A stretch of DNA of 49,070 nt from a bacterium (lineage in GTDB: Bacteria; Chloroflexota; Dormibacteria; Dormibacterales; Dormibacteraceae), in NCBI GenBank assembly GCA_902812395.1, contig CADDZO010000003.1, forward strand, positions 1 to 49,070, written 5' to 3'. The translations under genes and the position numbers were made by a program. This document shows positions 32,340 to 35,200 of this stretch, piece by piece. The first letter of the stretch is position 1. Each line of letters begins with the position of its first letter. The notes beneath the pieces are model-generated. The model did not search any database and was not told where the DNA came from. It saw nothing but the letters and a program-made list of their open reading frames with translations.

Positions 32340-33572
32340 TCACGCCTCGGCCAGGATCTGCTTGCTCACGCGGTAAGCAGACCTGATCGCTCCTTCCATG
32401 CCGCCGGGTCCGACTCGCTCGTCGGTGTGCTCCCCCGCGAAGAACACCCGGCCGTCTAGTGGGGCGGTGATGGTGGGCAGGACGCTCTGCCGTTGGTCTC
32501 CGATCAAGGCCCGCACCACTGCTCGTGACCAGGGATCTCTCGTCCACGACTTCACAGTGCCGAAGATCCGCTTGACCGGTCGCCCCGCCGCCGAGCTGAG
32601 GGTGGCGTCCAGCTGGTCGAGAAGCTCTTCATCCCTCTGGCCGACGGGCTCCGAGTCTCCGGCCGCAAGGCCGCCGACGACGATCTTGTCCCCGGTCTGG
32701 TGGATGGACTGGTCCATGATGAATCCCGGGATGCGGTCGGTGAAGCACCCCGGTCCGATCGCGCCTTTCAGCAGCTCCCGCTCGGCGTACTGGGCCACGA
32801 TCCGGGTCGCGTTGCCGTAGCGGAGTTGGAGCAATGCCTGGACCTTGTCGGCAGGAAGCACAGGATCGAATCCAAGCTCGGGGACGAGTGGTCCTGGCAC
32901 GGTGATCGCTACGCGGTCTCCGCGGAAGGTCGCTCGGTCAGTTTCGACTGTCACCCCATGGCGACCCCAGCCGATGATACGTGCTGCTTGGCCCAGCCGA
33001 ATATCGAGCTCCCTGGCGATCGCTCGGGGCAGCAGATCGTTGCCACCGACGATCTTGCGGTAGCCCTCTCCCCAGGAGATGTCGGCGTTCAGCTCCTCCG
33101 CATCGGCAATGCGAAGCGGCCCGGCCGGCGTGGATTGGGCGATCGCAGTCAACAGGAGCTCGGCCTGCTGGGACACGTGGGCCCGGCGCAGCCACTGAGC
33201 TATGGTCTCGTAGTGGCCGGGGCGGGTGTGCTGCATCGCGGCTTGGATCTCGGCGGCCAACTCCTGAGCGGCCCCTTCAGAGAGCCGCTGTCCACCGAAG
33301 ATGAGCGTTGGTACTCCTGGCCCCAGGCTCAGCTCCTGGCTCAACTCGAGCCCGAATCGCTCACACAGCCGGATCAGGTTGTCCTGCCCCTGGTAGATGA
33401 TCTCCGCGCCGACATCAGCGAACTGACCGTCACTCAGCCCTTCGCGCAAGGTGAGGATCCGCCCGCCCACCCGTCCCTGCGCCTCCAACACGATCACCTC
33501 GTGCCCGGCGGACTGGACCTCGATGGCTGTGACCAGTCCGGAGAGCCCCGCGCCGATGACCAGAAGCTTCAT
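32340..33572 (-). CDS. Flavin-containing amine oxidoreductase
   Basis: A 410-residue FAD enzyme of the monoamine oxidase/phytoene desaturase-like family. The N-terminus is the dinucleotide fold LLVIGAGLSGLVTAIEVQSA, with VLEAQGRVGGRI following (GG-doublet motif). Near the C-terminus, GRVFFAGEHTDERVGPGGME and GAIRSAYRVSKQI form the second FAD contact. It oxidises a primary or secondary amine, giving aldehyde, ammonia and peroxide. No signal peptide is present. Start ATG 33572 follows GAGAGGTGATGG on the minus strand. Its neighbours are a MetE-like gene (convergent) and transposon relics, so no pathway can be assigned. Confidence 0.87.
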   Translation of the reverse strand: MKLLVIGAGLSGLVTAIEVQSAGHEVIVLEAQGRVGGRILTLREGLSDGQFADVGAEIIYQGQDNLIRLCERFGLELSQELSLGPGVPTLIFGGQRLSEGAAQELAAEIQAAMQHTRPGHYETIAQWLRRAHVSQQAELLLTAIAQSTPAGPLRIADAEELNADISWGEGYRKIVGGNDLLPRAIARELDIRLGQAARIIGWGRHGVTVETDRATFRGDRVAITVPGPLVPELGFDPVLPADKVQALLQLRYGNATRIVAQYAERELLKGAIGPGCFTDRIPGFIMDQSIHQTGDKIVVGGLAAGDSEPVGQRDEELLDQLDATLSSAAGRPVKRIFGTVKSWTRDPWSRAVVRALIGDQRQSVLPTITAPLDGRVFFAGEHTDERVGPGGMEGAIRSAYRVSKQILAEA

Positions 33573-33789
33573 CCATCACCTCTCGCGGCCAGAGGCCGTC
33601 GAAGATTGCGAAACAAAGTTCTGCCCGCACGATGCGGTCGCCGTCGAGGACGACCGCGATCCCCGTGGCGCCGGCCCGGCACAGATGCCGAGGCCGTGCG
33701 TGCGATGCCCTTGGGCTTGGGCAATCCGCCTGAGGGACGTCTGCGGTTCCCTGCGGCTGGACCTGGGAGGACGGTGTTTCCGCTCCAGA

Positions 33790-34178
33790 TGACCTGGGCG
33801 TTCCCGGGCATCCGTCTGGTTTTCCGCCCTCCAGCCGCCGCCCTCGGCCGCTCGTGCCGATGCAACCCCGCCGGCTGTCCCACCACCGCCTGAACGATCG
33901 GCCCGAAGTCCCCGCTGTCCACCTCCTCCAGCGAGAGGCGGCCAACAGCCACTCCTGGCTCCTCGAGCGCCGCTGGTAGCTCGCCACGATCTGGGCGTGG
34001 TAGCCATCCGCTGACACCTCTTGGGGCACCTCGCTCACCCGGTGACCCGGACCCGCACCGCCCCCTACCCACCCCGATCTCTCGCTCCGGCAGGTGGGCG
34101 TTCCGGTGGCCACCAAACTCGCTGGTGCGCTGGAGCGCTGGCGTCGTTGACCTCCTCCTCCAGCACCTGCTGAAGCAT
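33790..34178 (-). pseudogene. IS256 (Mutator-type) transposase remnant
   Basis: Minus-strand pieces in changing frames match the N-terminal part of IS256 transposases: MLQQVLEEEVND, then GGHRNAHLPEREIGVG, then VSADGYHAQIVASYQRRSRS followed by QEWLLA, then LSLEEVDSGDFGPIVQAVVG. Three or more frameshifts break it, and the DDE catalytic part was not found. Region 33573-33789 shows nothing further that I can assign. Confidence 0.6.
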
Positions 34179-34336
34179 CCTCCGGGCCGTTGCGGATCCG
34201 TGAGCATGAGTCAGCCGACCCGCACTCACCGGTTGTCCGGTGGCGGTCCCGGTCTTACCCGCTTGCGCGGTGCCGGGTTCCTGCTTCATCGCCGTGTGCC
34301 CAGCACTGCCGGGTCGTACCTCGGCTCCACAGGCGT

Positions 34337-34768
34337 TTATCCTCTGCCACTGACGGCGAGCTTCTCACCCCACGAAGCAGGCTTCGTGGGGGCCCCGAGC
34401 TTGAGCAAGTTCTTCGCAGCGTTCACGTCTCGGTCGATGACCAGGCCACAGTTCTCGCAGCGGAAGATGCGCTCGGCTAGGGCGGAGCCGACCTCGGTCA
34501 CCACGCGGCCCACCGCCAAGCTCTGGGCTGCCGCCCATGCGGTCACCCGAGCAACCTGTCGGTCCAGATCCGCGCGCTGGTCAGCGGAGGACACTCGGGC
34601 ATCCACGACCGTGATCTCCGGAACGGCACTGACCGGCGCCTGATCCACCAGGATCAGCCGGCCGGGACGGCGCGCAGGAACCGGGAGCTTGCCTTCCCAG
34701 AACCAGCGGTACGCGGTCACGGGGTGGACGCCCTGTTGCCGCGCCCACTCCTTCCAGTTCACCCTCAT
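34337..34768 (-). CDS. IS607-type TnpA-TnpB fusion: recombinase N-terminus joined in frame to TnpB C-terminus
   Basis: This 143-residue protein is a chimera made by internal deletion of an IS607 element. Residues 1-42 are a MerR-like DNA-binding domain (MRVNWKEWARQQGVHPVTAY). Residues 55-96 are the start of the serine recombinase fold, with ARVSSADQRADLDRQVARV containing the catalytic Ser region (Ser60-61). At about residue 97 it switches to the C-terminus of TnpB: IFRCENCGLVIDRDVNAAKN (residues 101-120). That block carries the second zinc-finger CxxC and the RuvC-III DRDxNAA motif with its catalytic Asp. The frame is open across the join. Neither parent enzyme can be active, but DNA binding by the N-terminal domain could persist. 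Confidence 0.8.
   Translation of the reverse strand: MRVNWKEWARQQGVHPVTAYRWFWEGKLPVPARRPGRLILVDQAPVSAVPEITVVDARVSSADQRADLDRQVARVTAWAAAQSLAVGRVVTEVGSALAERIFRCENCGLVIDRDVNAAKNLLKLGAPTKPASWGEKLAVSGRG
34368..34391. repeat. Perfect 11-bp hairpin inside the TnpB C-terminal codons
   Basis: CCCCACGAAGC (34368-34378) is the exact complement of GCTTCGTGGGG (34381-34391), with AG between. It lies near the 3' end of the tnpB part, where IS607/IS605 elements overlap the omegaRNA scaffold, and probably is what remains of that structure. Confidence 0.5.
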
Positions 34769-35200
34769 ATATTACATAGGCTCGAACGCCAACAGTTACC
34801 GACCCCCTCGCGGACCACCACCCCCAGGGTATCGCCCGGTGGCGGGACCGGGGTGGTGGGTGGCAGAAGCTGGTATCGCGCGTTCAAGGGTAAGTTGCTT
34901 TGGTTGCTTGCTTGACGAGAAGGCTGCGCTTCTTTGCTCTCTCCCACCCTGGACTGGCTGCGCCGCCGCCGATTTTCCGCCAGAGCCTCGGTGACCTCAT
35001 CGGCCGGTTGGGGGGCTGGATAGTTCATTCCCTGACCGGGGCAGAAAGCCGTACGATCACCACGGTGACACTGGTCGGCGTATCAGGTCGAACGCCCGGT
35101 CGGGTTGGCGCTTCCGGTGATGGCGGGAGATGATCGACTCCGGATCGGCCCGGTCGGTCAGCTCTCTTAAGGTAAGTCTGCTGCTTTCCGAGGACGGACT
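34769..35200. other. Intergenic region including the IS607 left flank
   Basis: No supported gene. The AT-rich ATATATTACATAGG (34767-34780) just upstream of the recombinase start is probably the left-end promoter region of the IS607 remnant. The right part leads to the DUF1445 gene without a clear promoter. Confidence 0.35.

What the first reader, a model, noticed from the sequence alone, without database searches (positions are those of the whole stretch)
34337..34768. In-frame TnpA-TnpB chimera from an internally deleted IS607 element
The MerR-like and early serine-recombinase sequence of TnpA runs without a stop into the zinc-finger/RuvC-III end of TnpB. The deletion removed over a kilobase yet kept an open frame of 143 residues. 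The product retains a DNA-binding domain and a zinc-ribbon tail, so it could act as a repressor of related elements or be a trans-mobilised miniature.
Basis: partly seen in the sequence, partly recalled or inferred. Interest (0 to 1): 0.65.

Follow-up and report, generated by a model that had tools for sequence, protein, structure and literature searches.

The report
Crippled, shortened copy of jumping gene
This is one of many decaying copies of an IS607-type jumping gene in this genome; a chance internal deletion happened to join its two genes in one reading frame, and nothing found suggests the fused protein does anything.

Summary
Minus-strand ORF 34768-34337 (143 aa) joins IS607 TnpA residues 1 to ~96 in frame to the last ~47 residues of TnpB, inside a 622-bp element with recognisable left and right ends (34807-34186) and a retained RNA motif near the right end. 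A full-length copy in the same genome is 1,999 bp, so about 1.4 kb is missing.

The interpretation mostly fails. Only the second zinc knuckle remains, so there is no zinc ribbon. The recombinase core is cut off after its first fragment, removing the dimerisation helices and catalytic arginines. Arg24 of the DNA-binding domain, conserved in nearly all copies, is Trp here, and only that domain is predicted with confidence.

The junction occurs once: not elsewhere in this genome, in 41 related genomes, or in a scan of ~85,000 species genomes. The genome carries roughly 100 IS607 fragments, including three other internally deleted copies, each with its own junction; the clearest other TnpA-to-TnpB deletion is out of frame. 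One in-frame case is what a 1-in-3 chance allows.

Verdict: an ordinary internal-deletion relic, possibly still mobilisable in trans, with no evidence that it has been.

The parts
34186..34807 (-). whole internally deleted IS607-family element, 622 bp, left end at 34807, right end at 34186
   Evidence: LE (GGGGTCGGTAACTGTTGGCG) and RE (CTCACTGACCCGCAACGG) boundaries where many copies stop being alike
34337..34768 (-). 143-aa chimeric ORF
34482..34768 (-). TnpA part: winged-helix DNA-binding domain plus strand-helix-strand start of the serine recombinase core, catalytic Ser retained, catalytic arginines lost
   Evidence: NF033518 and PF00239 matches; phmmer to IS1535 TnpA 6dgb residues 3-47; 97% DNA identity to C15 copy
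34337..34482 (-). TnpB part: second zinc knuckle (FRCENCG) and RuvC-III motif (DRDVNAA), C-terminus
   Evidence: PF07282, NF040570, NF038280; frame shared with L115, L025 and L027
34481..34483 (-). deletion junction, 1-nt overlap
34368..34391 (.). palindrome CCCCACGAAGCAGGCTTCGTGGGG, repeated in other IS607 copies
34221..34287 (-). Rfam RF03015 Transposase-2 RNA motif, inside the right end
   Evidence: 56.2 bits, gathering 42.7; same motif in other copies
34278..34333 (-). weak RAGATH-18-like stretch (the family of IS607 TnpB guide RNAs), below the curated cut-off
   Evidence: 26.6 bits, gathering 44.9

Best explanation
A dead, non-autonomous relic of an IS607-family insertion sequence. A formerly complete copy (about 2 kb: tnpA, tnpB, right end) lost about 1.4 kb by a deletion with almost no microhomology between tnpA codon ~96 and the zinc-ribbon region of tnpB. 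The joined frame is open by chance. The protein, if made at all, would be a winged-helix domain with unfolded remnants. The DNA ends are largely present, so a full-length TnpA from another copy could in principle still move it; that step is inference and nothing shows it happened.
For: Same LE and RE as dozens of copies in this genome. The genome holds about 96-151 IS607 matches, many with stops or frameshifts or cut short, against 7 in the sister genome and at most one weak match in each of the other 40. Elements with both ends in one contig have many sizes (622, 773, 930, 1156, 1443 ... 1997 bp), no two alike. C219 has its own tnpA-to-tnpB deletion, out of frame; C23 and C28 have further different deletions. 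The window junction is unique. Changes apparently specific to the window copy after its split from its nearest relative include two nonsynonymous ones at conserved sites (R24W, Y56D) and no synonymous one in the TnpA part; the right end also has its own changes. AlphaFold is confident only for residues 1-40; residues 94-143 are below 50.
Against: The ORF has stayed open with no stop since the deletion; but the deletion may be recent and the stretch is short. The wHTH domain is otherwise intact. No expression data.
Confidence: 0.88

Rival explanations
1. A miniature non-autonomous element (MITE-like) that TnpA from other copies moves in trans.
For: Left and right ends retained; several copies with near-complete TnpA ORFs of 183-201 aa with the catalytic Ser and the HRDR motif.
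Against: Only one copy of the junction in the genome and none in relatives, whereas a mobile miniature should be multicopy. The outermost right end has its own substitution at 34199 (T in all 22 other copies).
Confidence: 0.06
2. A DNA-binding repressor or dominant negative that sits on IS607 ends.
For: wHTH domain present and predicted to fold; TnpA residues 1-50 of IS1535 are needed for end binding (PMC6188088).
Against: TnpA binds cooperatively as dimers formed by core helices B and D (PMC6188088), which are deleted here; R24W at a position that is Arg in 86 of 88 copies and Arg, Lys or Ala in outside homologues; singleton.
Confidence: 0.03
3. Assembly artefact joining two IS607 copies.
For: Short-read-like draft in 381 contigs; many contigs end inside IS607 copies.
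Against: Both halves carry variants not found in other copies, including 34699, 34225 and 34199, and the contig runs on for 14-34 kb on either side; a chimera of known copies would not have private variants on both sides.
Confidence: 0.03

Closest known systems
IS607-family insertion sequences (IS607, IS1535, ISC1926)
   Same: LE/RE layout, N-terminal wHTH plus serine recombinase TnpA, TnpB downstream; TnpA fragment aligns to IS1535 TnpA 6dgb (E 1.7e-11)
   Different: lacks most of TnpA and TnpB; cannot encode a transposase or a nuclease
Internally deleted, non-autonomous IS derivatives (MITE/MIC-like)
   Same: both ends, coding interior deleted
   Different: single copy, no evidence of movement
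IS607 TnpB guide RNA (RAGATH-18-derived reRNA, PMC11061315)
   Same: RNA-motif region between tnpB and the right end kept (RF03015 above cut-off)
   Different: RAGATH-18 match below cut-off; no complete TnpB frame found in the copies fetched

Membership tests
IS607-family element (derivative) | ends shared with full-length IS607 copies | tested here: met
IS607-family element (derivative) | N-terminal wHTH followed by serine recombinase core | tested here: inconclusive
   wHTH and first ~45 core residues present, rest deleted; NF033518 scores 77.3, below its cut-off of 110
Autonomous IS607 | complete tnpA | tested here: not met
   TnpA stops at residue ~96 of ~190
TnpB RNA-guided nuclease | RuvC I-III and full zinc ribbon | tested here: not met
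   only the last ~47 residues, one CxxC
MITE-like miniature family | several near-identical copies | tested here: not met
   junction found once
MITE-like miniature family | moved by TnpA in trans | not testable with these tools
   needs a transposition assay

The most novel reading that the evidence does not exclude
The retained winged-helix domain, or the retained right-end RNA, acts in trans on the ~100 sibling copies (a home-grown brake on, or guide-RNA donor to, the expanded IS607 family).
Probability: 0.03. Interest if true: 0.55.

Novelty: new member of a known kind. Interest (0 to 1): 0.12.

Why it matters
As found, little: it is one deletion relic in a family under decay. The wider setting is more useful: one draft genome with about 100 IS607 copies or fragments in 3.8 Mb while its relatives have almost none, a natural case for following how an IS607 burst ages.

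Tried and rejected
Same fusion elsewhere: searched by protein and DNA in the own genome, by junction pattern in 41 relatives, by protein in ~85,000 species genomes and IMG/VR, and by DNA in plasmids; none. Apparent full-query matches in L060, L063 and L064 proved to be ordinary TnpA. The C15 match to residues 1-133 is a frameshifted TnpA. The C28 match to residues 24-141 is a different deletion with stops. My guess that 33570-34186 is an IS256 remnant was not supported by Pfam, and most of that stretch is not repeated in the genome. An alignment with the TnpB tails added (A2) misplaced them and was not used.

Full report
What is there. On the minus strand, 34768-34337 is an open frame of 143 codons. 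Its N-terminal ~96 residues are IS607 TnpA: winged-helix domain, the ARVSS serine motif, and the first strand-helix-strand of the recombinase core. Its C-terminal ~47 residues are the end of TnpB: FRCENCG, DRDVNAA. Comparing with sibling copies, TnpA identity stops at ...GAGGTCGGCTCCGC and TnpB identity starts at CCCTAGCCGAGCGC, with one nucleotide shared. The element itself runs from a left end at about 34807 to a right end at about 34186, 622 bp; both borders were placed where many sibling copies stop being alike. A full-length sibling (L040) is 1,999 bp, so about 1.38 kb was lost.

What was lost. From TnpA: the arginines of the HRDR motif seen in siblings and the helices that form the core dimer in IS1535 and ISC1926 (helices B and D; PMC6188088). 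That the arginines are catalytic is general knowledge of serine recombinases. From TnpB: everything up to and including the first zinc knuckle (CSGCG), so RuvC I and II and half of the ribbon. The claim of a retained zinc-ribbon tail is therefore wrong. An AlphaFold model gives pLDDT of 85-89 for residues 1-40, 47-66 for 41-100 and below 50 from 94 onward. The alignment behind it had rows for the TnpA part only, apart from one unrelated frameshifted tail, so the low confidence of the TnpB tail is weak evidence.

Is it special? The genome (3.83 Mb, 381 contigs) gives 96 to 151 matches to the fusion, nearly all to one half or the other. The only other genome of the genus gives 7, and the other 40 in the family give at most one weak match each. 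Only the window matches residues 1-143 end to end. The 30-bp junction, with up to 3 mismatches, occurs once in the own genome and in none of 41 relatives. No relative of the fusion came from ~85,000 species genomes, IMG/VR or plasmids. These scans may leave out very near records, so a copy in an unsampled strain is not excluded.

Siblings decay the same way. Thirteen distinct elements in fetched loci hold both ends or parts of them, with spans from 622 to 1,997 bp and no two alike (the window and L115/L005, L029/L012 are listed twice there). C219 (773 bp) is also a tnpA-to-tnpB deletion, and it is out of frame; C23 (930 bp) is deleted within tnpB; C28 (1,156 bp) has yet another deletion plus stops. 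One in-frame case among such events is what a 1-in-3 chance allows. This is a handful of events, so it argues against a need for selection and does not exclude it.

Changes in the window copy. Against its nearest sibling (C15, 97%) and the other copies, the window copy has R24W (Arg in 86 of 88 copies) and Y56D, both nonsynonymous, and no synonymous change that is clearly its own in the TnpA part. Outside homologues have Arg, Lys or Ala at 24 and Tyr at 56. Numbers are too small for a rate test. Y56D is not unique: 46 of 83 copies in this genome have Asp there. The right end has private changes at 34225 and 34199. Private variants on both sides of the join argue against misassembly from two known copies.

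How it could still matter. Full-length or near-full-length TnpA frames exist in the genome, and the right end keeps the RF03015 motif above its cut-off, so trans-mobilisation or donation of a guide RNA cannot be ruled out. IS607 TnpB guide RNAs are RAGATH-18-derived (PMC11061315); the RAGATH-18 match here is below cut-off, RNA folding is only modestly better than shuffles (z -1.98), and no TnpB frame complete through the zinc ribbon was found in the fetched copies, many of which are cut by contig ends.

Conclusion. Steps shown: the join, the ends, the deletion, its uniqueness in what was searched. Steps inferred: chance retention of frame, lack of function, possible mobilisation in trans.

Noticed in passing
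genome G000 (window = C3): Strong IS607 expansion: 96-151 matches in a 3.8-Mb draft against 7 in the sister genome and almost none in 40 others of the family; many contigs end inside copies.
   Followed up: partly
TnpA residue 56 (34601-34603 in the window; L020, L078, L095 and others): The Tyr of the YxRVS motif, invariant in outside homologues, is Asp in 46 of 83 copies, including otherwise complete TnpA frames, and occurs on two sub-lineages. Cause unknown.
   Followed up: partly
L040, L022, L023, L024, L026 tnpB 3' part: Many copies share a change at the zinc ribbon (AAGCTGTCCCTAGCC to AAGGCTGGCC or similar) that shifts the frame and removes the second knuckle and RuvC-III from TnpB.
   Followed up: partly
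34368-34391; 120 hits per strand in G000: 24-bp palindrome CCCCACGAAGNNNGCTTCGTGGGG sits near both the start and the end of tnpB in many copies, in coding sequence. Its presence outside IS607 was not checked.
   Followed up: partly
33572-34185: Broken-looking GC-rich stretch beside the right end, with a partial 75% match at C62:16008-16269; looks like an old transposase remnant but no Pfam match.
   Followed up: partly
34482 and L115 (C219): Two independent deletions start within about 10 bp of each other in tnpA, near GGTCGGCT, which resembles the GGTCGG of the left end. May be chance.
   Followed up: no
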